Shown here piece by piece: positions 17,286 to 48,720 of a stretch of 64,000 nucleotides of DNA. Positions within the stretch are counted from its first letter, which is position 1, and each line of letters opens with the position of its first letter. The position numbers were made by a program, and so were the translations under genes. The DNA is from Sycon ciliatum (Eukaryota; Porifera; Calcarea; Leucosolenida; Sycettidae): contig NC_088654.1 of assembly GCF_964019385.1 (NCBI RefSeq), forward strand, positions 15,434,863 through 15,498,862, written 5' to 3'. The notes beneath the pieces are model-generated. The model saw only the letters and a program-made list of their open reading frames with translations, was not told where the DNA came from and did not search any database.

Positions 17286-17291
17286 CATAAC
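17286..17291. repeat. Target-site duplication, left (CATAAC)
   Basis: CATAAC lies directly outside the left end (AGTAGTTAG) of the palindromic element and is repeated directly outside its right end at 32820-32825. Confidence 0.9.
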
Positions 17292-17326
17292 AGTAGTTAG
17301 TGCGGGGCAGGTTCTGGCTCACTTTT

Positions 17327-17492
17327 TGACCTTTGACCTTTGGGCCAAATAAGGCACACTGTGTCGGTCGTGCTTGGTCTGGCCCCAGGACTTCCCCAGG
17401 GTTTGACCTTTGACCTTTGGGTTAAATAAGGCACACTGCGTCGGGCGCGCTTGGTCTGGCCCCGGGACTCCCCAGAGTTTGACCTTTGACCC
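17327..17492. promoter_or_regulatory. Left terminal tandem repeats with three AGGTCA DR1 sites
   Basis: A tandem repeat of about 76-77 bp carries TGACCTTTGACCT at 17327-17339, 17404-17416 and (with a CCC end) 17480-17492. Read on the minus strand this is AGGTCAAAGGTCA, a direct repeat with one-base spacing, the classical site of RXR/HNF4-type nuclear receptors. CTTGGTCTGGCCCC is the other conserved part of the unit. Confidence 0.75.
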
Positions 17493-17533
17493 CTGGCATG
17501 CCATAAATGTGCCATAAAGGTTCTTTTCCGTGG

Positions 17534-17765
17534 CGAACGTGCACTTGTGCACGTTCGGTGCATTCGCACCGGGGAGTAGTAAAATACGTACTATTTCCTG
17601 ATTTGCACATCGTAGATGTGCAGTGACATATTGCGCATGCGTGCATACGCACGCGGAGCGTGTGACCTTCAGAGACCCTGCTTGCGGGAAAGACGCAGTA
17701 CAACACAAGGTGTACTAGTACACGTGTCATTATACTACTCCCTGATTCGCACTTCGTAGATGTGC
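17534..17765. repeat. Subterminal hairpin cluster, left arm
   Basis: Four perfect or near-perfect small palindromes: CGAACGTGCAC/GTGCACGTTCG at 17534-17557, GGTGC-ATTC-GCACC at 17557-17570, GCACAT-CGTAG-ATGTGC at 17605-17621, and GCACTT-CGTAG-ATGTGC at 17749-17765. The last two share the loop CGTAG and the flank CCTGATT. The mirror copies lie at 32346-32577. Confidence 0.7.
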
Positions 17766-17780
17766 AGCAAACAAGTGAGT

Positions 17781-17914
17781 TAGTAGTAGTAGTAGTATTT
17801 ATTTTATTTACCATCGGATGCCTCAACAGTGATACACACAACTCTTAAGAGGGCCGATAACGGGATAAGTGGAAAGGAAAGGAAAAGAAAAGAAAAAATA
17901 GAAAAAATTGGAAT
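17781..17914. mobile_element. 134-bp insertion present only in the left arm
   Basis: The right arm reads continuously where this segment lies (junction near 32331). The insert begins with five TAG triplets, then TATTTATTTTATTTA, and ends in a purine-rich AGGAAAGGAAAAG tract. A simple-repeat end suggests a short non-LTR/SINE-type insertion, but no target duplication longer than one base is seen. It postdates formation of the palindrome. Confidence 0.7.
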
Positions 17915-18489
17915 TCACGTGCCATGCACTCGTTGAGCTCCAAGATCAGAACTCGGCTCAACGTAGTACTTGAAGTCACCGTTCCCATTACGTCATGTAC
18001 ATTTACATACACTCTGTTGAAGCACTGAAACATCGGTTTTCGGGGAATTCAACATGCGAATTTTTGAACATTCGGCGAAAAGATGGGTAATTTCTTCAAA
18101 ACCACTGTTTTCGGCGAATTTTTCGCCCGGCCGATTTGGGAAATGCCAACTATCCATGCATGTACATTAGATGCATATTTCTATTTTGATCGGGATACAG
18201 TAAGAATCAACCGGCTACGCCCGGAGTATCATGCATTAAAACAATAATTGAAGGGGTGTCACAGTGAAGCAGTGTTGCTACGCACCACAAATCCCCTCTG
18301 CACTGTACCGAATCTATACTGGAGAATCCAGAGTGGCCAGCAAAGAGTCACAACCCGCGGGTATCCAGTCACACTAAGGCATGTCCACCATTCCCCACAT
18401 ATTCACCATAACAAAACACAATACTGTTTACTATAATACACTTTTATTTAAATAATTGACTTGGATGAGTCTGTAGAAGAGAACACAAT

Positions 18490-18545
18490 GCACGCACACG
18501 CACGCATGCGCGGACACACACACGCACACACGCACACACACACAT
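18490..18545. repeat. (CA)n/(CG CA) microsatellite, left arm
   Basis: An alternating CA tract with CGCA interruptions; its mirror GT tract is at 31700-31755. Confidence 0.85.
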
Positions 18546-18843
18546 CTAGGTTATAGTGCTATACACGTATCTAGGGTTTAGGAAGCACGAGAATATGTCG
18601 AAGCACCCACACATACCCCTTCATGCAGTGTACTTCAGTAGCCCAACACGTTACGACCGCTCAGGACCATCACAAAACACATTACGACCGCTCAGGACCA
18701 TCACAAAACACTACACACTGTTACTACACTGCATACACAGTTACTACACTACGCCTGTTACAAGTACTTACAAATAATTTTGAAAACAAATGGCACATCC
18801 CGAAGACGGCAGCTAGCTCCAGACCTTCATACATACGTCATCA

Positions 18844-19329
18844 TCATCTGTAAAACCAAGCATGAGCGCACACAAACACTATTAGTGTCACGAATACGGA
18901 AGCAGGGTAAGACAAGAGGATACGAAACAAGTAAGTATCGCTATAACGAGGGGGGTAAGTATACATGTAGACAGAGCAGTGCTTACTTACAGGGTCCGGA
19001 TACGCTCCATGGCGTCCCGGTAGTCGGACTGCAACAGCAGCCCGACTTGCCGGCCCTCCCAGTAACGGGCCCGATGGGCCGCACCCGCCAGGTGTGCGGC
19101 CACGGCCTGGCCTCCCACCAGCCTTTCTCCACTGTAAAAACGAAAGAAACCGCAGAAAGCACAGTGTCATAGAGCTCTTTTGTTGGGGGAGAGAGCTAGG
19201 AGCACTGCACACTTACCATTTGTCGCAATATATGATAAGAAAGAGGCGGCGCTTGACGCACCGCCTCAGGTGCTGGAACAGGGGTATTACCCCTGTCAGC
19301 TCCACACCGCAGTGGCAAGTGAATGCCAT
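18844..19329 (-). CDS. Spliced two-zinc-finger small protein, left-arm copy
   Basis: Mirror of the gene at 30916-31401. Coding exons on the minus strand are 19217-19329, 18991-19131 and 18844-18847 (including the stop), with GT-AG introns. All finger residues and splice sites are identical to the right-arm copy. See the right-arm entry for the domain description. Confidence 0.65.
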
Positions 19330-19461
19330 ACTGTAAATGTAATGATACTGAAGTGAAGGTGTGAACCGCAAAGCAAGGCCTTTACCTTCTTCCTGTCGAA
19401 TTCGCTCCCCAGCTGCATACCGACATCACCCGCTAAAATCCAATCATACCAAGTAATGCAA

Positions 19462-19478
19462 AGGTCATCAGTTGACCT
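19462..19478. promoter_or_regulatory. AGGTCA inverted repeat in divergent promoter, left arm
   Basis: AGGTCA-TCAGT-TGACCT, an inverted pair of nuclear-receptor half-sites with five-base spacing, within the 264-bp gap between the divergently transcribed zinc-finger and MORN-RING genes. The same half-site forms the terminal repeats. Mirror at 30767-30783. Confidence 0.55.
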
Positions 19479-19527
19479 TTTGGACTTTTCAACTCTTATC
19501 CAAAACCACCAAGAGGAAAAAACCAGG

Positions 19528-19587
19528 ATGAAGAAGACGTCAGTTGTAGAAGCGTTTGTGGAGGAGTTGTTACATTATTCTCAGTAA
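19528..19587 (+). promoter_or_regulatory. Upstream ORF of the MORN-RING gene, left arm
   Basis: An ATG-initiated 19-codon frame (stop TAA at 19585-19587) ends six bases before the main ATG at 19594. If transcribed as the leader it should lower or gate translation of the main frame by reinitiation. Mirror on the minus strand at 30658-30717. Confidence 0.5.
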
Positions 19588-19593
19588 ATAGAT

Positions 19594-20643
19594 ATGGCTG
19601 ATACATTCGGCGTAGACTTGGACGACCGGTCGTGGTCTCTCACCACGGGTCCTTTACTAATAGAAAGATGGACGCCAATAAGAACTGTTGTGGAGTTGGC
19701 AGATCAAAACGCGCAGCAAGAAATTTGGCACGTCGATGGTAGACTCCATCGGGAGGACGGACCAGCTCTTGTTGATAGTAGGGGAGTGTCCGCCTGGTGC
19801 TATGGAGGTCGCCTTCATCGCGTTAATGAACCGGCTTGGATAGGACGGGGTAGCATAGAGTACTACCTCAACGGCGCCCGTCATAGAGCCGGCGGTCCTG
19901 CAGTCAGTTATTATGACGCCACATGCGGTATTCTACGGTGGTATCACCCCGGAAGACTCCACAGGTATGATGGCCCTGCAGTGGAAACATTTTCAGACCT
20001 TGGTGAAGACTCTGAGGGGTTCTACCGACACCGCGAAGAGTGGTATTGGAATGGCGTCAGACAAAGGATCGGCGACGGCCCTGCTCTGACGGAGAGATTT
20101 GATGGCGCCTATTTGCTGGAAGCCTGGTATGTCCAAGGGCGTCTACACAGAGTAGACGGACCAGCCAGGATCACTCGGAGTGATGATGGTATCACCATCC
20201 AGTGGTATTATCACGACCGGCTCCACAGGGAGAATGCGCCAGCCGTGATACGCAGGGAAGGTAACAACCGTGTACGGGAGTGGTACCGATACAACCTTCG
20301 GCATAGGGAAGATGGGCCTGCTTTCATCTCTCAGGAGGAGGGTATCTATCAGTGGTACCTCAACGGGGTGTATTACGGTGACCACCATCAAGACCAGGCA
20401 ATACACCCCATGGAGCTGCAGTACATCAATGTAGTGCCTACTAAGGTAGACTCGTCAGCAATAAGTCATGAGCCCATTTGTGTGATTTGTCAGGATACCC
20501 TGGACCGTCCTCTATCCAAGTTGGAGTGTGGTCATGAATTTCACTTCCACTGTATCAAGGAGTGGATCAGTTCTGCCTCCAGCCCAACTTGCCCAACCTG
20601 CCGCTACTCCATGACTGCTGAGGACTTGGTTGAGTTCTTGTAG
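19594..20643 (+). CDS. MORN-like repeat/RING-H2 E3 ubiquitin ligase, left-arm copy
   Basis: A 349-aa protein. Residues about 40-270 are about nine degenerate repeats of the pattern W-Y--GRLHR-DGPA (for example WHVDGRLHREDGPA, WYVQGRLHRVDGPA, WYRYNLRHREDGPA), a MORN-like design common in giant viruses and some phages. Residues 296-336 form a RING-H2 finger: C296-x2-C299, C312-x1-H314, H317-x2-C320, C333-x2-C336. All eight zinc ligands are present, so ubiquitin-ligase activity is expected, with the repeats as the likely substrate-binding arm. No signal peptide or membrane segment. It is transcribed toward the element centre, unlike its neighbours, from a shared divergent promoter with the zinc-finger gene. 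The copy at 29602-30651 is identical in predicted protein. The repeat family assignment is by pattern only. Confidence 0.85.
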   Translation: MADTFGVDLDDRSWSLTTGPLLIERWTPIRTVVELADQNAQQEIWHVDGRLHREDGPALVDSRGVSAWCYGGRLHRVNEPAWIGRGSIEYYLNGARHRAGGPAVSYYDATCGILRWYHPGRLHRYDGPAVETFSDLGEDSEGFYRHREEWYWNGVRQRIGDGPALTERFDGAYLLEAWYVQGRLHRVDGPARITRSDDGITIQWYYHDRLHRENAPAVIRREGNNRVREWYRYNLRHREDGPAFISQEEGIYQWYLNGVYYGDHHQDQAIHPMELQYINVVPTKVDSSAISHEPICVICQDTLDRPLSKLECGHEFHFHCIKEWISSASSPTCPTCRYSMTAEDLVEFL

Positions 20644-20729
20644 TAATACATGACACCGCTGCGTGTAGGCGACTACGAATGACCAGTCATGTGCTACAGA
20701 TGGACACGGACACGCCACCCTAAGTAGCC

Positions 20730-20963
20730 ATGAGCGGCTATTTGGACAAGGACAACAAAGCACCTCGTGGGTGGCCAAGGTTGACACTAGCCACAAGTCT
20801 GGTCGCTCAGTTGAATAAGCTGGGTGTGCCCATGAAGACCATGCAGAGGACAAGACAGACTGGAAGAAACTGTGCAGCTCGACACTCGAGGACAAATCAG
20901 TATCAGCAGCTACTACACCTTGCTGATGATGCTCACAAGACAGAAGTGGGGAAAAAAAACTGA
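20730..20963 (+). pseudogene. LINE ORF2 C-terminal scrap inside the left arm
   Basis: Reads RGWPRLTLATSLVAQLNKLG and, one frame over, EDKTDWKKLCSSTLED, resembling the RGRP-TW---DL--LG and DR--W--L tail of many LINE ORF2 proteins. A frameshift separates the two parts. It lies just downstream of the MORN-RING gene and is present in both arms, so it was acquired before the palindrome formed. Confidence 0.5.
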
Positions 20964-21071
20964 ATTTCTTTATTTAGTGCTCAACTACGCGAAATGTGTT
21001 ATTATTATTATACATGTTCAACTGTAATCAGTCTGGCTGACTGCCATTCTCTACCACACATTACCGGACAC

Positions 21072-22322
21072 TGTTGTGGTTGTCGTCGTTATCGTCGTCG
21101 TTGTTGATGTTGTAGTCGGTTGTTGTCGTCGTTATCGTCGTCGTTGTTGATGTTGTTATTGGTTGTTGTTGTCGGTTGTTGCCGGTTGTTGTCGTCGTTT
21201 GTTGTTGGTTGTTGTTGGTTGTTGTTGATGTTGTAGTCGGTTGTTGTCGTCGTTATCGTCGTCGTTGTTGATGTTGTTATTGGTTGTTGTTGTCGGTTGT
21301 TGCCGGTTGTTGTCGTCGTTTGTTGTTGGTTGTTGTTGGTTGTTGTTGATGTTGTTGTCGGTTGTTGTCGTCGTTATCGTCGTCGTTGTAGATGTTGTTA
21401 TTGGTTGTTGTTGGTTGTTGTTGTGTGTTGTTGTCGGTTGTTGTTGGCTGTTGGATGTTGTTGTCGGTTGTTGCTGGTTATTGTTGGTTGTTGTTGGTTG
21501 TTGTTGTTGTCGGTTGTTGTCGGTTGTTGGGTGTTGTTGTCGGTTGTTGGGTGTTCTTGTTGGCTGGTGTTGGTTGTTGTTGGTTGTTGTCGGTTGTTGT
21601 CCGTTGTTGTCGGCTGTTGCTAGTTGTTGCTGGTTGTTGTTGTTGGCTGTTGTTGGTTGTTGTTGGATGTTGTTGTCGGTTGTTGTCGGTTGCTAGTTGT
21701 TGGTTGTAGTTGGTTGTTGTCGGTTGTTGTTGGTTGTTGTCGGTTGTTTTCGGCCGTTGTCGGTTGTTGTTGTTTATTGTTGGCTGTTGTTGGTTGTTGT
21801 TGGGTGTTGTTTGGTATTGTTGTCGGTTGTTGCCGGTTGTCGTTTGCTGTTGTTGGTTGTTGTTGCCGGTTGTTGTCGGTTGTTGGGTGTTGTTGTCGGT
21901 TGTTGGGTGTTGTTGTTGTCGGTTGTTGGGTGGTGTTGTTGGTTGTTGTTGGTTGTTGTTGGTTGTTGCCGGATGTTGTCGGTTGTTGTTGGTTGTTGTT
22001 GTCGGTTGTTGTCGGTTGTTGTCGGTTGTTGTTGGTTGTTGTTGGTTGTTGTTGGTTGTTGTTGGTTGTTGTTGGCTGTTGTTGGCTGTTGTTGTCGGTT
22101 GTTGTTGGTTGTTGTTGGTAGTTGTTGTCGGTTGCTGTCGGTTGTTGTCGGTTGTTGTCGGTTGTTGTTGTTTGTTGTTGGTTGTTGTTGGTTGTTGTTG
22201 GTTGTTGTTGGTTGTTGTTGGCTGTTGTTGTTTGTTGTTGGTTGTTGTTGTCGGTTGTTGTCGGTTGTTGGGTGTTGTTGTTGGTTATTGTCGGTTGTTG
22301 TCGGTTGTTGTCGGTTGTTGTG
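21072..22322. repeat. 1.25-kb GGTTGTTGTY array, left arm
   Basis: Degenerate 10-bp units (GGTTGTTGTT, GGTTGTTGTC) with almost no A and few C on this strand. The first 300 bases have a longer unit of about 120 bp containing GTTGTCGTCGTTATCGTCG. Because 10 is not a multiple of 3, every frame on the complementary strand reads the same low-complexity N/Q/T peptide; the several long frames here are composition artefacts. GG pairs every 10 bases could form two-tier G-quadruplexes. Confidence 0.9.
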
Positions 22323-22537
22323 TTTTAACCCTTTGCGGTGCATCAGTCATTAACGACTGATATTGTGTACATACCGTAAAACTGTCGTAACTCCATCGAT
22401 TTTAGTCCTGTTGCACATATCGAAATATGTAGATTAATCGTTATTTTGTTCATTATCCAGGAGGATGTTGCTATGATTCAGTACCATTTTTTCGCATAAT
22501 GAGACAAGTTTGTGTAACGTTAGTGTGACGTGGGTAT

Positions 22538-22575
22538 GCTGATTGGATGCGAGGTGGTGAGAGTATGCTGATTGG
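22538..22575. promoter_or_regulatory. Paired GCTGATTGG (CCAAT) boxes, left arm
   Basis: TATGCTGATTGG occurs twice 29 bp apart (GCTGATTGG at 22538-22546 and 22567-22575). The same word appears in the promoter repeats of the 256-aa gene. Inverted CCAAT boxes usually bind NF-Y. The gene served here is unclear. Confidence 0.5.
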
Positions 22576-22819
22576 CCGATAACAATTAGTGGAAGGGATA
22601 AAGTAATGCGCTGCTTGTGCAGCGTAACCAAACACATGGTCTGTGGGAAACACCCTAGTAAAATAAATAAAATAATAATAACACGAATTGCCACCGGCAC
22701 TTGAGAGACTCGAGCCCCGCCACCTTGTTCAAATCGGACTTGGTAGCTTCGTATTGGAACTTAATCTTCTTCTTTTTGAGGTATGACCGTACAAAACGCG
22801 CTTGGAGTTTTCATTTATT

Positions 22820-23188
22820 TTATTTTTTCATTGCAACTTTTTTAGCAGATGTCCACTCGTGAAACAACGGTGAATCTGGAACGAATAAATGGTCCATGCC
22901 AAAGGCATGACGAGTCTCGAAGTCTTCACATTCATGATGGAACCTTGTCATGATTGACGCATTCCTTGATGGTGCGCACATGAAATCAACCTGGCTCATC
23001 TTTTCCAATTCCATTCTTTTCACATCCTGCAACCCATACCCTACTAGTATCAGTGGGGACGCTAGAATCAGAAGAGGCAAGGCAGCACTCTTCCGTGGAT
23101 GTATTACTCGACACAACACCACCCATACTTGTTTTCTAGAAGTTTTGAATATAATGATATATTGCAGTAGGAAGTAGTATACAGTCAA
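22820..23188 (-). CDS. Possible small membrane protein, left-arm copy
   Basis: Mirror of 27057-27425; no base difference was noticed. See the right-arm entry. The start is uncertain. Confidence 0.3.
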   Translation of the reverse strand: MTVYYFLLQYIIIFKTSRKQVWVVLCRVIHPRKSAALPLLILASPLILVGYGLQDVKRMELEKMSQVDFMCAPSRNASIMTRFHHECEDFETRHAFGMDHLFVPDSPLFHEWTSAKKVAMKK

Positions 23189-23248
23189 ATAGGATAGGAT
23201 AAGAATGAATGATCAGCTGTCTGATAAAGAATGCAGTTCATTAAAGAC

Positions 23249-24019
23249 TTATTGGAAGCTCTCTACCAGCTGATCGTCTTGTTGAACGGCGACACTGCAT
23301 AATGATATGAAGCTCTCAGTTAGCTGTTTCAGTTCCGTGGTAGAAAGTGTCATGTGCGCGTCCAGAGCACGATGAAAACATCTGGGCTCCACGTGGATGC
23401 AGACGATTGGAGCAACAGTAAGACGTACCTTCAACGCCTGCTCGTCAATGTCGAGGGAGACTGCCCCGGGGTAGATGAAAACATCTTGTTCCACATCCAG
23501 TTCGAACGAGCTGGTCGGGACTAGCTTGCTTTCACCGTTGATGTACACCCGACATTGACCGTCGGACGAACGTGATGGGTAGAAGTTGGTCTTGATCTTC
23601 TCCACACGTCCTCTTCGGAGAGTGTCACGGAGCGATGGACAAGTCTTGATCAAGTTCGTAATGATGAACTCAGTGGACTCATTCAGGTCGATGTAAACCT
23701 GTCCTTGAGCATCTTTGCGAGCTGTTGCCGTACTACCACAGGCTGGTAGAGCTCCTGAAGGGAAGTACATCTTATAACCAGGCTTGTAGAAGGATCTACC
23801 TGATGACTTGTAGGACAGTTGCATGTCCTCCTGAAACCCATCCACCACAATCTCTTTGTGGAGCTTGGTAGGAGCAGGTGGCACATAGCGACGCTTAGCC
23901 GGTACTGCGTTCGAAGAGAGCACAACTTGAGGAGGGTCAGCAGGAAGAGCGGAATTCTTCCTCACCCGTCGCTCGTAAAGGGAATCCATCTTCCAGGAAG
24001 CGAAGGCAGAACAACTCAT
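23249..24019 (-). CDS. Conserved 256-aa protein of unknown function, left-arm copy
   Basis: Mirror of 26226-26996, with the same predicted protein. See the right-arm entry. Confidence 0.6.
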   Translation of the reverse strand: MSCSAFASWKMDSLYERRVRKNSALPADPPQVVLSSNAVPAKRRYVPPAPTKLHKEIVVDGFQEDMQLSYKSSGRSFYKPGYKMYFPSGALPACGSTATARKDAQGQVYIDLNESTEFIITNLIKTCPSLRDTLRRGRVEKIKTNFYPSRSSDGQCRVYINGESKLVPTSSFELDVEQDVFIYPGAVSLDIDEQALKVRLTVAPIVCIHVEPRCFHRALDAHMTLSTTELKQLTESFISLCSVAVQQDDQLVESFQ

Positions 24020-24068
24020 CAGCACTGTATTCGATGAACGAATGACTCAACTACAGGACAACCATCTG

Positions 24069-24250
24069 TATTTATACAAGTCAGAGACGGGGGCGGATTG
24101 AAATGTTAAAAATATGTGTCAGCTAGATCAACCAATCACCATCAAGCCCGACACAAACATTTGCCCAATCAGCATTGAGCCCGCCAAAAACATTTGACCA
24201 ACCAGCATCAAACTCACCAAAAACATTTTGTCCAGTCAGCGGCATGCCCA
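24069..24250 (-). promoter_or_regulatory. Promoter of the left 256-aa gene
   Basis: Mirror of 25995-26176: TATA box at 24069-24076 on the minus strand, and the CCAAT-type tandem repeats at about 24130-24250. Confidence 0.65.
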
Positions 24251-24263
24251 CCAAATAATTATC

Positions 24264-24992
24264 TCATCTTAAAGATTCCTTACATGATACAGCCACTTTA
24301 GTGAACTGATACAGTATGGAAATAAGATCAAAGTCAAACGTGTGCAAGTTCTGAATCACGTGATCAAGTGAATAGGTTTCCCAACAATAGGCATCAATCA
24401 ATGATGTCATAAGAGATGTATCAGATGGAGATAAAATCAGCAAATTCGTACGCAACGTGGACAGTTGAGATGATGACACCATCCTGGTCGACTCCATGAG
24501 ATGCAGTACATATAGGAGTGGAAAATGCTGAGGAAGAGGTTTCATGATTCGACTGAACCTCAACCACGATACATTGCTACGAGGTAAGTAGGAACGCAGT
24601 TTACGTAGTACATCCACATTCGTATCGTATACTATGCAGGATAATGCTATAGCATAGTTTAAACTCTTGTACAAACAGGATTTTTTCATCGCAAGTAACT
24701 GCTCCCGAAGAGGGTGTACGCAAAGCTGATCGGATAAGAGTTCAGTTTTCGAAAGAAAATGCAAAAGATGACGATCCACACCGCATAACCGCTCATGTAC
24801 AGCGTAACGCTTCTTCATCAAACTACATCTCCTATGCACATCATCTTCAGGGAAGTAAATCACCGCCATGACAAGTCCACACGAAGAACACACGTATCTT
24901 CCTTCATGTAAAACATGATCAAGATGTTGACACTGTTTTTCCTCCCCGTATTGCTCTTTTTCTTCTTCTTTCTTCTTAAATTCAGAATCCAT
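24264..24992 (-). CDS. TFIIB-like zinc-ribbon protein, left-arm copy
   Basis: Mirror of 25253-25981. One coding difference was seen: the residue after the CGLV of the zinc ribbon is Met here (T on the coding strand, position 24868) and Thr in the right arm (25377). Otherwise as the right-arm entry. Confidence 0.65.
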   Translation of the reverse strand: MDSEFKKKEEEKEQYGEEKQCQHLDHVLHEGRYVCSSCGLVMAVIYFPEDDVHRRCSLMKKRYAVHERLCGVDRHLLHFLSKTELLSDQLCVHPLREQLLAMKKSCLYKSLNYAIALSCIVYDTNVDVLRKLRSYLPRSNVSWLRFSRIMKPLPQHFPLLYVLHLMESTRMVSSSQLSTLRTNLLILSPSDTSLMTSLIDAYCWETYSLDHVIQNLHTFDFDLISILYQFTKVAVSCKESLR

Positions 24993-25045
24993 CTTCACTC
25001 CTCACCAACATCCTCATTATGACACTATATCCAGCATGATATCTA

Positions 25046-25060
25046 CTTTATATAACCAAT
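25046..25060 (-). promoter_or_regulatory. Promoter of the left TFIIB-like gene
   Basis: CTTTATATA at 25046-25054 (TATATAAAG on the minus strand) and ACCAAT at 25055-25060, about 60 bp before the ATG. Mirror of 25185-25199. Confidence 0.7.
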
Positions 25061-25115
25061 CCTATCCAGGGCAATTATCAGGTACAACCATGGGGGTAGA
25101 TGACCTCATACCCTC

Positions 25116-25129
25116 TCCGACGTGTTGGC
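25116..25129. other. Central spacer of the palindrome
   Basis: The 14 bases TCCGACGTGTTGGC are the only asymmetric sequence between the arms. Arm pairing starts at C25115/G25130 with CCTCATACCCTC against GAGGGTATGAGG. The spacer could be the loop of a former hairpin end or the scar of a head-to-head joining event. Two identical TATA promoters fire outward from it. Confidence 0.9.
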
Positions 25130-25184
25130 GAGGGTATGAGGTCATCTACCCCCATGGTTGTACCTGATAATTGCCCCGGATAGG

Positions 25185-25199
25185 ATTGGTTATATAAAG
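25185..25199 (+). promoter_or_regulatory. Promoter of the right TFIIB-like gene
   Basis: ATTGGT (inverted CCAAT) at 25185-25190 directly abuts TATATAAAG at 25191-25199; the ATG is at 25253, leaving room for a short leader. Confidence 0.7.
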
Positions 25200-25252
25200 T
25201 AGATATCATGCTGGATATAGTGTCATAATGAGGATGTTGGTGAGGAGTGAAG

Positions 25253-25981
25253 ATGGATTCTGAATTTAAGAAGAAAGAAGAAGAAAAAGAGCAATACGGG
25301 GAGGAAAAACAGTGTCAACATCTTGATCATGTTTTACATGAAGGAAGATACGTGTGTTCTTCGTGTGGACTTGTCACGGCGGTGATTTACTTCCCTGAAG
25401 ATGATGTGCATAGGAGATGTAGTTTGATGAAGAAGCGTTACGCTGTACATGAGCGGTTATGCGGTGTGGATCGTCATCTTTTGCATTTTCTTTCGAAAAC
25501 TGAACTCTTATCCGATCAGCTTTGCGTACACCCTCTTCGGGAGCAGTTACTTGCGATGAAAAAATCCTGTTTGTACAAGAGTTTAAACTATGCTATAGCA
25601 TTATCCTGCATAGTATACGATACGAATGTGGATGTACTACGTAAACTGCGTTCCTACTTACCTCGTAGCAATGTATCGTGGTTGAGGTTCAGTCGAATCA
25701 TGAAACCTCTTCCTCAGCATTTTCCACTCCTATATGTACTGCATCTCATGGAGTCGACCAGGATGGTGTCATCATCTCAACTGTCCACGTTGCGTACGAA
25801 TTTGCTGATTTTATCTCCATCTGATACATCTCTTATGACATCATTGATTGATGCCTATTGTTGGGAAACCTATTCACTTGATCACGTGATTCAGAACTTG
25901 CACACGTTTGACTTTGATCTTATTTCCATACTGTATCAGTTCACTAAAGTGGCTGTATCATGTAAGGAATCTTTAAGATGA
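25253..25981 (+). CDS. TFIIB-like zinc-ribbon protein, right-arm copy
   Basis: A 242-aa protein from the ATG at 25253 in good context (AGGAGTGAAGATGG); the frame extends two codons upstream only through GTG. After a lysine/glutamate-rich start comes a zinc ribbon: C21-x1-H23, then EGRYVCSSCGLV with C35-x2-C38. A short C/H pair, EG-x3-C-x2-CGLV, is the signature of TFIIB/Brf-type ribbons, including divergent viral ones. The rest (about 60-240) is leucine-rich and looks helical, which would suit degenerate cyclin folds, but I cannot demonstrate them. Length is below cellular TFIIB (about 310-350 aa). Likely role: recruiting RNA polymerase II to element promoters in the nucleus. It is the first gene outward from the centre, behind its own TATA box. 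Alternative: an unrelated zinc-ribbon regulator. Confidence 0.65.
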   Translation: MDSEFKKKEEEKEQYGEEKQCQHLDHVLHEGRYVCSSCGLVTAVIYFPEDDVHRRCSLMKKRYAVHERLCGVDRHLLHFLSKTELLSDQLCVHPLREQLLAMKKSCLYKSLNYAIALSCIVYDTNVDVLRKLRSYLPRSNVSWLRFSRIMKPLPQHFPLLYVLHLMESTRMVSSSQLSTLRTNLLILSPSDTSLMTSLIDAYCWETYSLDHVIQNLHTFDFDLISILYQFTKVAVSCKESLR

Positions 25982-25994
25982 GATAATTATTTGG

Positions 25995-26176
25995 TGGGCA
26001 TGCCGCTGACTGGACAAAATGTTTTTGGTGAGTTTGATGCTGGTTGGTCAAATGTTTTTGGCGGGCTCAATGCTGATTGGGCAAATGTTTGTGTCGGGCT
26101 TGATGGTGATTGGTTGATCTAGCTGACACATATTTTTAACATTTCAATCCGCCCCCGTCTCTGACTTGTATAAATA
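25995..26176 (+). promoter_or_regulatory. Promoter and CCAAT repeats of the right 256-aa gene
   Basis: Three to four imperfect repeats of about 34 bp at 25995-26115 each carry a G-TG-TTGG box followed by CAAATGTTT (clearest GCTGATTGG at 26072-26080 and GGTGATTGG at 26105-26113). A CCGCCCCCG box lies near 26148 and TATAAATA at 26169-26176, 50 bp before the ATG at 26226. Confidence 0.7.
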
Positions 26177-26225
26177 CAGATGGTTGTCCTGTAGTTGAGT
26201 CATTCGTTCATCGAATACAGTGCTG

Positions 26226-26996
26226 ATGAGTTGTTCTGCCTTCGCTTCCTGGAAGATGGATTCCCTTTACGAGCGACGGGTGAGGAAGAATTCCGCTCTT
26301 CCTGCTGACCCTCCTCAAGTTGTGCTCTCTTCGAACGCAGTACCGGCTAAGCGTCGCTATGTGCCACCTGCTCCTACCAAGCTCCACAAAGAGATTGTGG
26401 TGGATGGGTTTCAGGAGGACATGCAACTGTCCTACAAGTCATCAGGTAGATCCTTCTACAAGCCTGGTTATAAGATGTACTTCCCTTCAGGAGCTCTACC
26501 AGCCTGTGGTAGTACGGCAACAGCTCGCAAAGATGCTCAAGGACAGGTTTACATCGACCTGAATGAGTCCACTGAGTTCATCATTACGAACTTGATCAAG
26601 ACTTGTCCATCGCTCCGTGACACTCTCCGAAGAGGACGTGTGGAGAAGATCAAGACCAACTTCTACCCATCACGTTCGTCCGACGGTCAATGTCGGGTGT
26701 ACATCAACGGTGAAAGCAAGCTAGTCCCGACCAGCTCGTTCGAACTGGATGTGGAACAAGATGTTTTCATCTACCCCGGGGCAGTCTCCCTCGACATTGA
26801 CGAGCAGGCGTTGAAGGTACGTCTTACTGTTGCTCCAATCGTCTGCATCCACGTGGAGCCCAGATGTTTTCATCGTGCTCTGGACGCGCACATGACACTT
26901 TCTACCACGGAACTGAAACAGCTAACTGAGAGCTTCATATCATTATGCAGTGTCGCCGTTCAACAAGACGATCAGCTGGTAGAGAGCTTCCAATAA
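26226..26996 (+). CDS. Conserved 256-aa protein of unknown function, right-arm copy
   Basis: Not recognised. The ATG at 26226 is chosen because the frame otherwise begins at GTG; a second ATG nine codons later (MDSLYERRVRKN) is also possible. The N-terminus is basic and proline-rich to about residue 50 (KRRYVPPAPTKLHKE). The remainder has alternating hydrophobic residues typical of a beta-rich fold (YKPGYKMYFPSG, VYIDLNESTEFIITNLI, DVFIYPGAVSLDID, KVRLTVAPIVCIHV), followed by a helical C-terminus. No signal peptide, membrane segment or catalytic motif is seen. It has a strong TATA/CCAAT promoter, and both arms preserve the frame. A structural protein or a DNA-binding beta-barrel protein are possibilities, not conclusions. 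Confidence 0.6.
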   Translation: MSCSAFASWKMDSLYERRVRKNSALPADPPQVVLSSNAVPAKRRYVPPAPTKLHKEIVVDGFQEDMQLSYKSSGRSFYKPGYKMYFPSGALPACGSTATARKDAQGQVYIDLNESTEFIITNLIKTCPSLRDTLRRGRVEKIKTNFYPSRSSDGQCRVYINGESKLVPTSSFELDVEQDVFIYPGAVSLDIDEQALKVRLTVAPIVCIHVEPRCFHRALDAHMTLSTTELKQLTESFISLCSVAVQQDDQLVESFQ

Positions 26997-27056
26997 GTCT
27001 TTAATGAACTGCATTCTTTATCAGACAGCTGATCATTCATTCTTATCCTATCCTAT

Positions 27057-27425
27057 TTGACTGTATACTACTTCCTACTGCAATATATCATTATATTCAA
27101 AACTTCTAGAAAACAAGTATGGGTGGTGTTGTGTCGAGTAATACATCCACGGAAGAGTGCTGCCTTGCCTCTTCTGATTCTAGCGTCCCCACTGATACTA
27201 GTAGGGTATGGGTTGCAGGATGTGAAAAGAATGGAATTGGAAAAGATGAGCCAGGTTGATTTCATGTGCGCACCATCAAGGAATGCGTCAATCATGACAA
27301 GGTTCCATCATGAATGTGAAGACTTCGAGACTCGTCATGCCTTTGGCATGGACCATTTATTCGTTCCAGATTCACCGTTGTTTCACGAGTGGACATCTGC
27401 TAAAAAAGTTGCAATGAAAAAATAA
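27057..27425 (+). CDS. Possible small membrane protein, right-arm copy
   Basis: A 122-codon open frame with a hydrophobic stretch LPLLILASPLILVGYGL (about residues 37-53) and a charged C-terminal half ending in KKVAMKK. It is followed at once by AATAAA signals (about 27422-27432). It has no upstream ATG: the frame opens at TTG (27057), and the first ATG (27231) would remove the hydrophobic part. Either the start is in an unseen upstream exon or only the last 65 residues are made. An overlapping ATG frame at 27119-27259 begins MGGVVSS. It follows the 256-aa gene by 60 bp and could be its 3' partner. Confidence 0.3.
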   Translation: MTVYYFLLQYIIIFKTSRKQVWVVLCRVIHPRKSAALPLLILASPLILVGYGLQDVKRMELEKMSQVDFMCAPSRNASIMTRFHHECEDFETRHAFGMDHLFVPDSPLFHEWTSAKKVAMKK

Positions 27426-27669
27426 AATAAATGAAAACTCCAAGCGCGTTTTGTACGGTCATACCTCAAAAAGAAGAAGATTAAGTTCCAATACGAAGCT
27501 ACCAAGTCCGATTTGAACAAGGTGGCGGGGCTCGAGTCTCTCAAGTGCCGGTGGCAATTCGTGTTATTATTATTTTATTTATTTTACTAGGGTGTTTCCC
27601 ACAGACCATGTGTTTGGTTACGCTGCACAAGCAGCGCATTACTTTATCCCTTCCACTAATTGTTATCGG

Positions 27670-27707
27670 CCAATCAGCATACTCTCACCACCTCGCATCC
27701 AATCAGC
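27670..27707. promoter_or_regulatory. Paired CCAAT boxes, right arm
   Basis: Mirror of 22538-22575: CCAATCAGC at 27670-27678 and 27699-27707. Confidence 0.5.
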
Positions 27708-27922
27708 ATACCCACGTCACACTAACGTTACACAAACTTGTCTCATTATGCGAAAAAATGGTACTGAATCATAGCAACATCCTCCTGGATAATGAACAAA
27801 ATAACGATTAATCTACATATTTCGATATGTGCAACAGGACTAAAATCGATGGAGTTACGACAGTTTTACGGTATGTACACAATATCAGTCGTTAATGACT
27901 GATGCACCGCAAAGGGTTAAAA

Positions 27923-29173
27923 CACAACAACCGACAACAACCGACAACAACCGACAATAACCAACAACAACACCCAACAACCGACAACAACCGACAACAA
28001 CAACCAACAACAAACAACAACAGCCAACAACAACCAACAACAACCAACAACAACCAACAACAACCAACAACAAACAACAACAACCGACAACAACCGACAA
28101 CAACCGACAGCAACCGACAACAACTACCAACAACAACCAACAACAACCGACAACAACAGCCAACAACAGCCAACAACAACCAACAACAACCAACAACAAC
28201 CAACAACAACCAACAACAACCGACAACAACCGACAACAACCGACAACAACAACCAACAACAACCGACAACATCCGGCAACAACCAACAACAACCAACAAC
28301 AACCAACAACACCACCCAACAACCGACAACAACAACACCCAACAACCGACAACAACACCCAACAACCGACAACAACCGGCAACAACAACCAACAACAGCA
28401 AACGACAACCGGCAACAACCGACAACAATACCAAACAACACCCAACAACAACCAACAACAGCCAACAATAAACAACAACAACCGACAACGGCCGAAAACA
28501 ACCGACAACAACCAACAACAACCGACAACAACCAACTACAACCAACAACTAGCAACCGACAACAACCGACAACAACATCCAACAACAACCAACAACAGCC
28601 AACAACAACAACCAGCAACAACTAGCAACAGCCGACAACAACGGACAACAACCGACAACAACCAACAACAACCAACACCAGCCAACAAGAACACCCAACA
28701 ACCGACAACAACACCCAACAACCGACAACAACCGACAACAACAACAACCAACAACAACCAACAATAACCAGCAACAACCGACAACAACATCCAACAGCCA
28801 ACAACAACCGACAACAACACACAACAACAACCAACAACAACCAATAACAACATCTACAACGACGACGATAACGACGACAACAACCGACAACAACATCAAC
28901 AACAACCAACAACAACCAACAACAAACGACGACAACAACCGGCAACAACCGACAACAACAACCAATAACAACATCAACAACGACGACGATAACGACGACA
29001 ACAACCGACTACAACATCAACAACAACCAACAACAACCAACAACAAACGACGACAACAACCGGCAACAACCGACAACAACAACCAATAACAACATCAACA
29101 ACGACGACGATAACGACGACAACAACCGACTACAACATCAACAACGACGACGATAACGACGACAACCACAACA
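27923..29173. repeat. 1.25-kb AC-only array, right arm
   Basis: Mirror of 21072-22322, seen here as ACAACAACCR units. The arms appear to have kept the same unit order despite the array's inherent instability, which implies recent formation or active correction. Confidence 0.9.
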
Positions 29174-29281
29174 GTGTCCGGTAATGTGTGGTAGAGAATG
29201 GCAGTCAGCCAGACTGATTACAGTTGAACATGTATAATAATAATAACACATTTCGCGTAGTTGAGCACTAAATAAAGAAAT

Positions 29282-29515
29282 TCAGTTTTTTTTCCCCACT
29301 TCTGTCTTGTGAGCATCATCAGCAAGGTGTAGTAGCTGCTGATACTGATTTGTCCTCGAGTGTCGAGCTGCACAGTTTCTTCCAGTCTGTCTTGTCCTCT
29401 GCATGGTCTTCATGGGCACACCCAGCTTATTCAACTGAGCGACCAGACTTGTGGCTAGTGTCAACCTTGGCCACCCACGAGGTGCTTTGTTGTCCTTGTC
29501 CAAATAGCCGCTCAT
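29282..29515 (-). pseudogene. LINE ORF2 scrap inside the right arm
   Basis: Mirror of 20730-20963. Confidence 0.5.
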
Positions 29516-29601
29516 GGCTACTTAGGGTGGCGTGTCCGTGTCCATCTGTAGCACATGACTGGTCATTCGTAGTCGCCTACACGCAGCGGTGTCATGTATT
29601 A

Positions 29602-30651
29602 CTACAAGAACTCAACCAAGTCCTCAGCAGTCATGGAGTAGCGGCAGGTTGGGCAAGTTGGGCTGGAGGCAGAACTGATCCACTCCTTGATACAGTGGAA
29701 GTGAAATTCATGACCACACTCCAACTTGGATAGAGGACGGTCCAGGGTATCCTGACAAATCACACAAATGGGCTCATGACTTATTGCTGACGAGTCTACC
29801 TTAGTAGGCACTACATTGATGTACTGCAGCTCCATGGGGTGTATTGCCTGGTCTTGATGGTGGTCACCGTAATACACCCCGTTGAGGTACCACTGATAGA
29901 TACCCTCCTCCTGAGAGATGAAAGCAGGCCCATCTTCCCTATGCCGAAGGTTGTATCGGTACCACTCCCGTACACGGTTGTTACCTTCCCTGCGTATCAC
30001 GGCTGGCGCATTCTCCCTGTGGAGCCGGTCGTGATAATACCACTGGATGGTGATACCATCATCACTCCGAGTGATCCTGGCTGGTCCGTCTACTCTGTGT
30101 AGACGCCCTTGGACATACCAGGCTTCCAGCAAATAGGCGCCATCAAATCTCTCCGTCAGAGCAGGGCCGTCGCCGATCCTTTGTCTGACGCCATTCCAAT
30201 ACCACTCTTCGCGGTGTCGGTAGAACCCCTCAGAGTCTTCACCAAGGTCTGAAAATGTTTCCACTGCAGGGCCATCATACCTGTGGAGTCTTCCGGGGTG
30301 ATACCACCGTAGAATACCGCATGTGGCGTCATAATAACTGACTGCAGGACCGCCGGCTCTATGACGGGCGCCGTTGAGGTAGTACTCTATGCTACCCCGT
30401 CCTATCCAAGCCGGTTCATTAACGCGATGAAGGCGACCTCCATAGCACCAGGCGGACACTCCCCTACTATCAACAAGAGCTGGTCCGTCCTCCCGATGGA
30501 GTCTACCATCGACGTGCCAAATTTCTTGCTGCGCGTTTTGATCTGCCAACTCCACAACAGTTCTTATTGGCGTCCATCTTTCTATTAGTAAAGGACCCGT
30601 GGTGAGAGACCACGACCGGTCGTCCAAGTCTACGCCGAATGTATCAGCCAT
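29602..30651 (-). CDS. MORN-like repeat/RING-H2 E3 ubiquitin ligase, right-arm copy
   Basis: Mirror of 19594-20643 with the same 349-aa product; all RING ligands and repeat units are retained. Having two identical intact copies argues that the frame is recent or maintained. Confidence 0.85.
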   Translation of the reverse strand: MADTFGVDLDDRSWSLTTGPLLIERWTPIRTVVELADQNAQQEIWHVDGRLHREDGPALVDSRGVSAWCYGGRLHRVNEPAWIGRGSIEYYLNGARHRAGGPAVSYYDATCGILRWYHPGRLHRYDGPAVETFSDLGEDSEGFYRHREEWYWNGVRQRIGDGPALTERFDGAYLLEAWYVQGRLHRVDGPARITRSDDGITIQWYYHDRLHRENAPAVIRREGNNRVREWYRYNLRHREDGPAFISQEEGIYQWYLNGVYYGDHHQDQAIHPMELQYINVVPTKVDSSAISHEPICVICQDTLDRPLSKLECGHEFHFHCIKEWISSASSPTCPTCRYSMTAEDLVEFL

Positions 30652-30657
30652 ATCTAT

Positions 30658-30717
30658 TTACTGAGAATAATGTAACAACTCCTCCACAAACGCTTCTACA
30701 ACTGACGTCTTCTTCAT
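30658..30717 (-). promoter_or_regulatory. Upstream ORF of the MORN-RING gene, right arm
   Basis: Mirror of 19528-19587; a 19-codon frame ending six bases before the main start. Confidence 0.5.
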
Positions 30718-30766
30718 CCTGGTTTTTTCCTCTTGGTGGTTTTGGATAAGAGTTGAAAAGTCCAAA

Positions 30767-30783
30767 AGGTCAACTGATGACCT
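30767..30783. promoter_or_regulatory. AGGTCA inverted repeat in divergent promoter, right arm
   Basis: Mirror of 19462-19478, between the MORN-RING and zinc-finger genes. Confidence 0.55.
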
Positions 30784-30915
30784 TTGCATTACTTGGTATG
30801 ATTGGATTTTAGCGGGTGATGTCGGTATGCAGCTGGGGAGCGAATTCGACAGGAAGAAGGTAAAGGCCTTGCTTTGCGGTTCACACCTTCACTTCAGTAT
30901 CATTACATTTACAGT

Positions 30916-31401
30916 ATGGCATTCACTTGCCACTGCGGTGTGGAGCTGACAGGGGTAATACCCCTGTTCCAGCACCTGAGGCGGTGCGTCAAGCGCCGCC
31001 TCTTTCTTATCATATATTGCGACAAATGGTAAGTGTGCAGTGCTCCTAGCTCTCTCCCCCAACAAAAGAGCTCTATGACACTGTGCTTTCTGCGGTTTCT
31101 TTCGTTTTTACAGTGGAGAAAGGCTGGTGGGAGGCCAGGCCGTGGCCGCACACCTGGCGGGTGCGGCCCATCGGGCCCGTTACTGGGAGGGCCGGCAAGT
31201 CGGGCTGCTGTTGCAGTCCGACTACCGGGACGCCATGGAGCGTATCCGGACCCTGTAAGTAAGCACTGCTCTGTCTACATGTATACTTACCCCCCTCGTT
31301 ATAGCGATACTTACTTGTTTCGTATCCTCTTGTCTTACCCTGCTTCCGTATTCGTGACACTAATAGTGTTTGTGTGCGCTCATGCTTGGTTTTACAGATG
31401 A
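30916..31401 (+). CDS. Spliced two-zinc-finger small protein, right-arm copy
   Basis: Three coding exons: 30916-31028, 31114-31254 and 31398-31401 (last base of a Leu codon plus TGA). Donors are GTAAGT (31029, 31255); acceptors are TTTTTACAG and TTTTACAG. The joined frame is 85 codons. It makes two finger-like modules that only become clear after splicing: Cys5-x1-Cys7-x12-His20-x3-Cys24, and Cys35-x2-Cys38-x12-His51-x5-His57, the second crossing the first exon junction. The C-terminal 28 residues are rich in Arg and acidic residues (YWEGRQ, SDYRDAMERIR). A non-coding fourth exon is likely: donor GTAAGT at 31474, acceptor CTTCTACAG ending 31774, AATAAA at 31797-31802. Likely a nuclear nucleic-acid-binding regulator; family not identified. 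It is the outermost gene of the arm. Confidence 0.7.
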
Positions 31402-31699
31402 TGATGACGTATGTATGAAGGTCTGGAGCTAGCTGCCGTCTTCGGGATGTGCCATTTGTTTTCAAAATTATTTGTAAGTACTTGTAACAGGCGTAGTGTA
31501 GTAACTGTGTATGCAGTGTAGTAACAGTGTGTAGTGTTTTGTGATGGTCCTGAGCGGTCGTAATGTGTTTTGTGATGGTCCTGAGCGGTCGTAACGTGTT
31601 GGGCTACTGAAGTACACTGCATGAAGGGGTATGTGTGGGTGCTTCGACATATTCTCGTGCTTCCTAAACCCTAGATACGTGTATAGCACTATAACCTAG

Positions 31700-31755
31700 A
31701 TGTGTGTGTGTGCGTGTGTGCGTGTGTGTGTCCGCGCATGCGTGCGTGTGCGTGC
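31700..31755. repeat. (GT)n microsatellite, right arm
   Basis: Mirror of 18490-18545, lying in the predicted last intron of the zinc-finger gene. Confidence 0.85.
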
Positions 31756-31796
31756 ATTGTGTTCTCTTCTACAGACTCATCCAAGTCAATTATTTA

Positions 31797-31802
31797 AATA
31801 AA
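31797..31802 (+). terminator. AATAAA polyadenylation signal of the zinc-finger gene
   Basis: AATAAA 23 bases after a well-formed acceptor (31774). The mirror signal is at 18443-18448 on the minus strand. Confidence 0.5.
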
Positions 31803-32345
31803 AGTGTATTATAGTAAACAGTATTGTGTTTTGTTATGGTGAATATGTGGGGAATGGTGGACATGCCTTAGTGTGACTGGATACCCGCGGGTTGTGACTC
31901 TTTGCTGGCCACTCTGGATTCTCCAGTATAGATTCGGTACAGTGCAGAGGGGATTTGTGGTGCGTAGCAACACTGCTTCACTGTGACACCCCTTCAATAA
32001 TTGTTTTAATGCATGATACTCCGGGCGTAGCCGGTTGATTCTTACTGTATCCCGATCAAAATAGAAATATGCATCTAATGTACATGCATGGATAGTTGGC
32101 ATTTCCCAAATCGGCCGGGCGAAAAATTCGCCGAAAACAGTGGTTTTGAAGAAATTACCCATCTTTTCGCCGAATGTTCAAAAATTCGCATGTTGAATTC
32201 CCCGAAAACCGATGTTTCAGTGCTTCAACAGAGTGTATGTAAATGTACATGACGTAATGGGAACGGTGACTTCAAGTACTACGTTGAGCCGAGTTCTGAT
32301 CTTGGAGCTCAACGAGTGCATGGCACGTGAACTCACTTGTTTGCT

Positions 32346-32577
32346 GCACATCTACGAAGTGCGAATCAGGGAGTAGTATAATGACACGTGTACTAGTACA
32401 CCTTGTGTTGTACTGCGTCTTTCCCGCAAGCAGGGTCTCTGAAGGTCACACGCTCCGCGTGCGTATGCACGCATGCGCAATATGTCACTGCACATCTACG
32501 ATGTGCAAATCAGGAAATAGTACGTATTTTACTACTCCCCGGTGCGAATGCACCGAACGTGCACAAGTGCACGTTCG
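32346..32577. repeat. Subterminal hairpin cluster, right arm
   Basis: Mirror of 17534-17765, with the same four small palindromes. This arm lacks the 134-bp insertion next to it. Confidence 0.7.
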
Positions 32578-32618
32578 CCACGGAAAAGAACCTTTATGGC
32601 ACATTTATGGCATGCCAG

Positions 32619-32784
32619 GGGTCAAAGGTCAAACTCTGGGGAGTCCCGGGGCCAGACCAAGCGCGCCCGACGCAGTGTGCCTTATTTAACCCAAAGGTCA
32701 AAGGTCAAACCCTGGGGAAGTCCTGGGGCCAGACCAAGCACGACCGACACAGTGTGCCTTATTTGGCCCAAAGGTCAAAGGTCA
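32619..32784. promoter_or_regulatory. Right terminal tandem repeats with three AGGTCA DR1 sites
   Basis: AGGTCAAAGGTCA at 32695-32707 and 32772-32784, and GGGTCAAAGGTCA at 32619-32631, spaced 76-77 bp. Mirror of the left end. Confidence 0.75.
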
Positions 32785-32819
32785 AAAAGTGAGCCAGAAC
32801 CTGCCCCGCACTAACTACT

Positions 32820-32825
32820 CATAAC
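32820..32825. repeat. Target-site duplication, right (CATAAC)
   Basis: Second copy of CATAAC, directly outside CTAACTACT. Unit A homology resumes immediately after it (CGGATTTTATTGTGTAGCCC). Confidence 0.9.
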
Positions 32826-48599: not shown

Positions 48600-48720
48600 A
48601 GGAAACCTTGAGAAGGTGTCGTTCTGGGGTGGTACAATTGGCAAAGTAATCGACAATATTGCGCGCTGTAACCGCATGGTATTGTCCTGGGCGATATCTC
48701 GCTTAGGCACAGATGACGAG
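48600..48720 (+). other. Coding-like island matching the palindrome's target site
   Basis: An open frame reading GNLEKVSFWGGTIGKVIDNI then ARCNRMVLSW. Unit C (61285-61380) has the same frame with one stop; unit A has GSGEKVSLQGGTLGKFLDHI then ARHNR, interrupted after ARHN by the palindromic element. TGTAAC at 48667-48672 corresponds to the CATAAC target. Confidence 0.45.

What the first reader, a model, noticed from the sequence alone, without database searches (positions are those of the whole stretch)
17292..32819. A whole 15.5-kb mobile element that is one near-perfect palindrome
Seen: complementarity of x and 50245-x across both arms, sharp ends AGTAGTTAG/CTAACTACT, and an exact 6-bp duplication outside them. 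Known: Polintons have 6-bp duplications and short-to-medium inverted ends, not ends that make up the entire element. Inference: a palindromic, gene-bearing element in which every gene is diploid in cis. I know of no described transposon or endogenous virus with this layout.
Basis: partly seen in the sequence, partly recalled or inferred. Interest (0 to 1): 0.96.

Follow-up and report, generated by a model that had tools for sequence, protein, structure and literature searches.

The report
Palindromic Polinton-like elements in a sponge
A sponge genome carries many copies of a roughly 15-kb mobile element that is one long palindrome, each half holding the same genes; the palindrome itself seems to be the form that jumps, which hints at an unusual way for a virus-like element to copy itself.

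Summary
The palindrome is real: 17292-32819, arms of 7,831 and 7,697 bp, ends AGTAGT/ACTACT, exact CATAAC duplication, no inverted homology outside. The arms differ by six mismatches, three of them at the very centre, and by about 134 bp present only in the left arm.

It is not a one-off. In the same 538-Mb assembly the end sequence occurs 346 times. At 28 window-type insertions checked, 25 have exact and mutually different 6-bp duplications (window; 14 of 17; 10 of 10). In 28 of 40 centre regions found with an arm query the palindrome is unbroken over 3.6 kb or more. Centre variants and some one-arm differences are shared by copies at different sites, so the palindromic form itself is what transposes.

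Ends and duplication are those of Polintons/Mavericks. The window's arms carry a RING/repeat protein, an unknown protein and a TFIIB-like protein; no polymerase, integrase or capsid gene was recognised. A palindromic element elsewhere in the genome carries PolB and a related TFIIB-like gene in each arm.

Most likely: a palindromic branch of Polinton-type elements, the window copy helper-dependent, replicating through a full-length hairpin. Architecture shown; replication route inferred.

The parts
17286..17291 (.). target-site duplication CATAAC, left copy
   Evidence: empty-site alignment
32820..32825 (.). target-site duplication CATAAC, right copy
17292..25122 (+). left arm, 7,831 bp, outer end AGTAGTTAG
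25123..32819 (-). right arm, 7,697 bp, outer end CTAACTACT
17782..17915 (.). about 134 bp present in the left arm only; no second copy in the window
25113..25132 (.). centre, imperfect 20-nt form; other copies have a 28-nt perfect palindrome here
17325..17491 (.). 77-bp terminal direct repeats (2.2 copies) with AGGTCAAAGGTCA motifs, left
32620..32786 (.). 77-bp terminal direct repeats with AGGTCAAAGGTCA motifs, right
19594..20643 (+). 349-aa protein: H-x-x-D-G-P-A-type repeats (read by eye) plus C-terminal RING finger (left arm copy)
29602..30651 (-). same RING protein, right arm copy
21073..22321 (.). array of about 10-bp repeats, left arm
27924..29173 (.). array of about 10-bp repeats, right arm
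23249..24019 (-). 256-aa conserved protein of unknown function (left arm)
26226..26996 (+). 256-aa conserved protein of unknown function (right arm)
24264..24992 (-). 242-aa TFIIB-like protein: zinc ribbon plus helical core (left arm)
25253..25981 (+). TFIIB-like protein (right arm)

Best explanation
The element is one of many copies of a palindromic, Polinton-type mobile element in a calcareous sponge (Sycon ciliatum or a close relative). The palindrome is the form that is copied and inserted. SHOWN: whole-element palindrome; Polinton-type ends (AGTAGT//ACTACT); different 6-bp duplications at independent sites; centre variants and one-arm differences shared between insertions at different sites; a PolB-bearing palindromic relative with a related TFIIB-like gene in each arm. 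INFERRED: the window copy lacks its own PolB and integrase and is mobilised in trans by Polinton machinery. In protein-primed strand-displacement replication, the displaced strand of a palindromic genome would fold into a full-length 7.7-kb hairpin whose blunt end recreates the double-stranded origin; copying would unfold it into a new 15.5-kb palindrome. Mismatch correction while the arms are paired, or gene conversion, would keep the arms nearly identical, and small central deletions would relieve the perfect centre.
For: Ends and duplication match the Maverick motif (AGT)2//(ACT)2 plus 6-bp duplication (PMC8097293 passages). 17 other paired loci from the end search: 14 with exact 6-bp duplications; 10 of 10 further window-type pairs exact, 0 of 90 mismatched pairings equal. 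346 end matches, 0 in the reversed-pattern control. 28 of 40 centre loci unbroken palindromes over 3.6 kb or more. Within-element arm differences sum to 68 against a shuffled mean of 657; 0 of 2000 shuffles as low. One-arm differences are shared by the elements L080 and L081, which have different duplications. The window's derived centre is found in eleven other elements, in both orientations. PolB palindrome C1:6022135-6039787 with duplication GTCGAT, read from the printed ends; its TFIIB-like protein is 46% identical to the window's. Frames open in 46 of 51 full-length TFIIB-like and 66 of 67 full-length unknown-protein copies in the fetched pieces.
Against: No PolB, rve or capsid family in 17 frames of the window's left arm (6 of them also in PHROGs). 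None of 52 PolB matches falls inside the 74 listed end pairs (the list is partial). 3 of 17 pairs lack a matching duplication, and at a fourth (C9) the duplication matches only the inner of two left ends found. The 40 centre loci were found with the window's arm as query and are not a random sample. Of 10 midpoints of listed end pairs, only 4 fell on a palindromic centre; 4 showed neither a centre nor similarity to the arm, so elements with these ends need not all be palindromic. Of 4 pairs probed at 3 kb depth, 2 were complementary. The PolB-type and window-type ends differ beyond AGTAG. Hairpin replication was not observed. Shared one-arm differences show that homogenisation is not complete in each cycle.
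Confidence: 0.66

Rival explanations
1. A non-Polinton DNA transposon: a transposase encoded in the arm (for example the unknown 256-aa protein) cuts the AGT ends and makes 6-bp duplications; the likeness to Polintons is convergent.
For: No PolB or integrase recognised in 17 frames of the left arm; 0 of 52 PolB matches inside the 74 listed pairs of window-type ends; the 256-aa protein is conserved and its frame open in 66 of 67 full-length copies.
Against: Ends and duplication length are those of Mavericks; a palindromic PolB element in the same genome shares the AGTAG start, a 6-bp duplication and a homologous TFIIB-like gene. The model of the 256-aa protein was too poor (pLDDT 35) to show any fold, for or against.
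Confidence: 0.18
2. Each palindrome arises anew: a conventional Polinton forms a snap-back or defective palindromic genome during replication, which integrates once and is a dead end.
For: AAV snapback genomes are a precedent for self-complementary defective genomes (PMC8235507, start of abstract seen in the listing; symmetric adenovirus genomes recalled). PolB and TFIIB-like genes in a different, unpaired arrangement exist in the genome.
Against: Centres are not scattered: the same 28-nt palindrome or its derivatives recur, and one-arm differences are shared by independent insertions. The founder may still have formed this way.
Confidence: 0.1
3. Assembly or sequencing artefact (fold-back read, missed adapter, collapsed centre).
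For: Inverted chimaeras are a known artefact (recalled); raw reads could not be seen.
Against: Different flanks with exact duplications at both ends; about 134 bp in one arm only; recurrence at many sites with site-specific arm differences.
Confidence: 0.02
4. A foldback-type element, or two conventional elements inserted head to head.
For: Long inverted arms and local repeat arrays; foldback-like families exist (Tm1, PMC3169594, listing seen).
Against: The printed centre holds no pair of element ends; the arms hold open gene frames and repeats are local; the duplication is 6 bp; the same centre is found at many sites.
Confidence: 0.04

Closest known systems
Polinton/Maverick elements
   Same: 6-bp duplications; (AGT)2//(ACT)2 ends; total size within the 12.7-24.6 kb given for intact vertebrate elements (PMC8097293 passages); a palindromic relative in this genome carries a PolB_2-family polymerase
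   Different: Vertebrate inverted repeats are 46-1,447 bp, here the whole element; no PolB, integrase or capsid gene recognised in the window arms
Polinton-like viruses
   Same: Inverted terminal repeats of hundreds to thousands of bp, sometimes with 4-6 bp duplications (PMC12220804 passages)
   Different: Here there is no unique interior; that survey kept insert sizes of 6-80 kb with repeats of 0.1-8 kb, so elements of this kind may have been filtered out (my inference)
Self-complementary or snapback defective genomes (AAV, listing; symmetric adenovirus genomes recalled)
   Same: A self-complementary genome that can fold into a hairpin
   Different: Those are described as defective by-products; here the palindromic form is inherited through many insertions and carries open genes
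Foldback elements (FB, Galileo recalled; Tm1 from the listing)
   Same: Very long inverted arms
   Different: Gene content, 6-bp duplication, AGT ends, repeats only local in the arms

Membership tests
Polinton/Maverick | 6-bp target-site duplication | tested here: met
   window CATAAC; 14 of 17; 10 of 10
Polinton/Maverick | AGT-repeat ends with complementary ACT ends | tested here: met
   AGTAGT//ACTACT; motif from PMC8097293 passages
Polinton/Maverick | terminal inverted repeats | tested here: met
   extreme: they make up the whole element
[quoted passage not shown]
   no match in 17 frames of the window's left arm; 0 of 52 PF03175 matches inside 74 listed pairs. Present in a palindromic relative
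Polinton/Maverick | rve-type integrase in the element | tested here: not met
   no match in the same 17 frames; a genome search returned 150 scored matches of 3,665 candidates, many in open frames of about 1,300-1,400 aa, taken as retrotransposons, and does not settle the helper
Polinton/Maverick | capsid, packaging ATPase and protease genes | tested here: inconclusive
   none recognised in the window by Pfam (17 frames) or PHROGs (6 frames); divergent capsids may be missed; one Peptidase_C5 match in the genome, about 2 kb from a PolB match
Foldback elements | long, internally repetitive inverted arms without genes (definition recalled) | tested here: not met
   arms carry open frames and only local repeat arrays
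TFIIB family (protein 24264-24992) | zinc ribbon plus cyclin-like core | tested here: inconclusive

The most novel reading that the evidence does not exclude
A multipartite, self-complementary virus-like system: palindromic segments, one with PolB and others with accessory genes, each carrying a related TFIIB-like gene, replicate as full-length hairpins (7.7-8.8 kb duplex, one closed end, one protein-linked end) and are inserted and inherited as palindromes, so that arm pairing gives built-in repair and concerted evolution.
Probability: 0.25. Interest if true: 0.96.

Novelty: new variant of a known kind. Interest (0 to 1): 0.88.

Why it matters
Perfect palindromes of this length are expected to be unstable in chromosomes (general knowledge), yet at least 28 copies examined in one sponge genome are unbroken around their centres and have spread as palindromes. 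That offers a natural system for how giant palindromes survive and for how protein-primed linear replicons handle their displaced strand. It also suggests that surveys requiring a unique interior may have missed such elements. It gives a concrete test of an open question in Polinton biology: which replicative form is inserted.

Tried and rejected
My first reading of the asymmetric centre as the original snap-back loop (3 of 6 mismatches in the last 7 bp) was dropped: nine other copies have a 28-nt perfect palindrome there, and the window's centre reads as a derivative with an 8-nt deletion and one base change. Scans of the viral and prokaryote collections gave no relatives. The 256-aa protein gave no confident fold and no PDB relative. 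Structure searches for the TFIIB-like protein are weak. The rve genome search was swamped by what look like retrotransposons. Two wishes did not complete because the machine was busy: mapping TFIIB-like loci with the window protein, and listing ends of the PolB-type element.

Dropped or partial rows: 27 of 40 centre loci had both arm pieces, 11 had one, 2 had none; only the 27 were used for within-element counts. One search used the first 100 listed places of each end search (346 and 211 matches in all). The deep-probe, duplication and midpoint samples were chosen by me from the list: the seven new duplication pairs are the first listed whose loci had not been fetched in any form; the ten midpoints are pairs of about 14.7-15.5 kb and skip some rows. 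In one search the C9 locus has two left ends; I counted the inner one, which matches.
Full report
OBSERVATION. The palindrome at 17292-32819 is real. In register 50245 the match is 94% against 25-35% in 20 neighbouring registers. The inner arms differ at six pairs only, three of them in the last seven pairs at the centre. The outer 490 bp match perfectly in register 50111, because about 134 bp at 17782-17915 are in the left arm only. The ends and the CATAAC duplication are exact, and inverted homology stops there. The 134-bp stretch has no second copy in the window.

INSERTION SITE. Joining the flanks at one CATAAC gives a sequence that aligns across the join to two tandem paralogues in the window, at 48576-48685 and 61258-61373 (about 74%), reaching 13-15 bp past the join. 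By eye the aligned stretch keeps an open frame, so the element may sit in an exon of a tandem gene family; no gene model was tested. The support from the right side is short.

HOST. A relative of the 256-aa protein bears a name of the scpid type (P0003), as does a relative of the TFIIB-like protein (P0022). In print that label is used for Sycon ciliatum (PMC6526912 passages). The window lies in a 538-Mb assembly of 313 contigs. That the assembly is Sycon or a close relative is my inference.

GENES PER ARM. (1) A 349-aa protein with H-x-x-D-G-P-A-type repeats (by eye) and a C-terminal RING finger (zf-RING_2 E 6e-10). (2) A 256-aa conserved protein of unknown function; the protein search listed six matches. 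(3) A TFIIB-like protein; the profile search listed 48 proteins at E 0.1 or better, nine of them those used to build the profile. Its zinc ribbon resembles TFIIB's in sequence (5 of 10 members, weak), and TFIIB and Brf1 lead the structure comparison without reaching significance. (4) A 10-bp repeat array. No polymerase, integrase or protease family was matched in the 17 left-arm frames scanned with Pfam; 6 of them were also scanned with PHROGs.

COPIES IN THE GENOME. The first 2 kb of the left arm finds 17 other places where two inverted copies face each other, most about 15 kb apart, one about 8 kb and one about 17 kb, besides the window; four matches were listed singly, and only 40 of 2,110 candidates were scored. 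Anchored on the end motif, 14 of the 17 have exact 6-bp duplications, counting at C9 the inner of two left ends; C2:3740k, C12:8865k and C13:2659k do not. Seven further pairs taken in list order and three elements chosen for their arm differences gave 10 of 10 exact duplications, all different, against 0 of 90 mismatched pairings. The 17-base end occurs 346 times with at most one mismatch, 0 in the reversed control; a variant occurs 211 times exactly, control 0. Among the first 100 listed places of each there are 42 and 31 facing pairs under 30 kb (84 and 62 of 100 places), with median lengths of 15.2 and 15.4 kb, against one back-to-back pair in each list.

IS THE PALINDROME GENERAL? Of 40 centre regions (window plus 39 others), 28 are unbroken inverted repeats over 3.6 kb or more, 10 are interrupted or partial, and 2 (L077, L083) show no opposite arm within the piece fetched. 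These were found with the window's arm as query, so they are not a random sample. Less biased probes are mixed: 2 of 4 pairs are complementary at 3 kb depth, one of them over 78 bp only, and 4 of 10 midpoints fall on a palindromic centre, three of these without similarity to the window's arm; 2 of 10 fall in window-like arm and 4 of 10 show neither. Length changes in one arm would move the centre away from the midpoint, so the misses do not show asymmetry, but they do not show palindromes either.

THE PALINDROME IS INHERITED. Nine loci have a perfect 28-nt centre; five have the same centre less 8 nt, and the window and eleven more have a further base change, in both orientations. So the asymmetric centre is derived and has been carried to many sites. 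In 27 elements with both arm pieces, the arms of one element differ by 0-7 in 2 kb (median 2); 344 of 390 non-majority states are in both arms. The summed within-element difference is 68, against a shuffled mean of 657 and minimum of 358 in 2000 shuffles. Yet 11 of 50 one-arm substitution columns, one of them the centre itself, are shared by two or more elements. L080 and L081 share four and sit at different sites with different duplications. So arms are largely homogenised, but whole palindromes with their arm differences have also been copied to new sites.

A POLYMERASE-BEARING PALINDROME. PF03175 has 52 listed matches in the genome, several in open frames of 1,189 aa, some in inverted pairs. 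Between one pair the 5.1 kb is a 99.2% palindrome carrying a TFIIB-like gene (46% identical to the window's protein) on both sides. The palindrome continues outward to ends beginning AGTAG, with a GTCGAT duplication that I read from the printed ends: C1:6022135-6039787, 17,653 bp. Other copies of its TFIIB-like gene are inverted pairs at C3 and C13 and a pair about 17 kb apart at C2; several are listed singly, among them one at C13 beside a PolB in the arm-like order. A 92-93% identical group sits singly, 9.5-9.7 kb from a PolB and facing it (C12 twice, C1, C14, C11), which looks like an ordinary asymmetric relative. The ends of those were not examined.

MECHANISM. Polintons are defined by protein-primed PolB, an rve integrase and inverted repeats (PMC12220804 passage). 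Inferred here: trans-mobilisation of the window family, and a hairpin intermediate. The hairpin explains the near-identity of the arms, the divergence concentrated at the centre, and why a whole-length inverted repeat would be tolerated or favoured: the displaced strand recreates a double-stranded origin at once. It is not shown.

COMPARISON. Intact vertebrate Mavericks have inverted repeats of 46-1,447 bp. The word stem palindrom does not occur in the main text of PMC8097293 or PMC12220804. Searches for Polinton or Maverick with palindrome, duplication or sponge terms and for Sycon with transposable elements listed no title or abstract start describing a palindromic Polinton; apart from passages of the two papers named, only listings were seen, and most subscription papers and all preprints are missing from the library.

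VERDICT. Architecture and repeated transposition as a palindrome: strongly supported. Polinton-type mobilisation: likely. Hairpin replication: plausible and testable.

Noticed in passing
17327-17492 and 32619-32784: Six AGGTCAAAGGTCA motifs (at most one mismatch) in the terminal repeats of both ends and none elsewhere in the window, 0.08 expected; this is the DR1 form of nuclear-receptor sites (recalled).
   Followed up: partly
21478-22284, minus strand, and mirror: The 10-bp repeat array is open in several frames, one of 268 aa rich in Q, T and N.
   Followed up: no
34-63 kb: The right flank holds direct repeats 12-15 kb apart, about 80-93% identical, apparently tandem copies of a gene family.
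   Followed up: partly
2518-4422: A long open frame matches Phospholipase B (E 1.7e-143).
   Followed up: no
G000:C7:14315879-14346707 and C9:33287679-33302887: Copies nested inside end sequences of other copies, with 6-bp duplications inside the older end.
   Followed up: partly
G000:C10:25643942-25652262: An 8.3-kb element of the same kind with a different centre and its own duplication AACTAC.
   Followed up: partly
L119, L127, L128: Palindromic centres inside elements with the same ends but no BLAST similarity to the window's arm: perhaps other families.
   Followed up: no
G000:C2:9349260-9373916: Inverted PolB and TFIIB-like arms with about 17 kb between them: a large insert or a unique interior.
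   Followed up: no
G000:C8:35219072-35456850 and C7:29545339-29576900: Arrays of same-strand fragments of the PolB-element TFIIB-like gene at intervals of a few to tens of kb.
   Followed up: no
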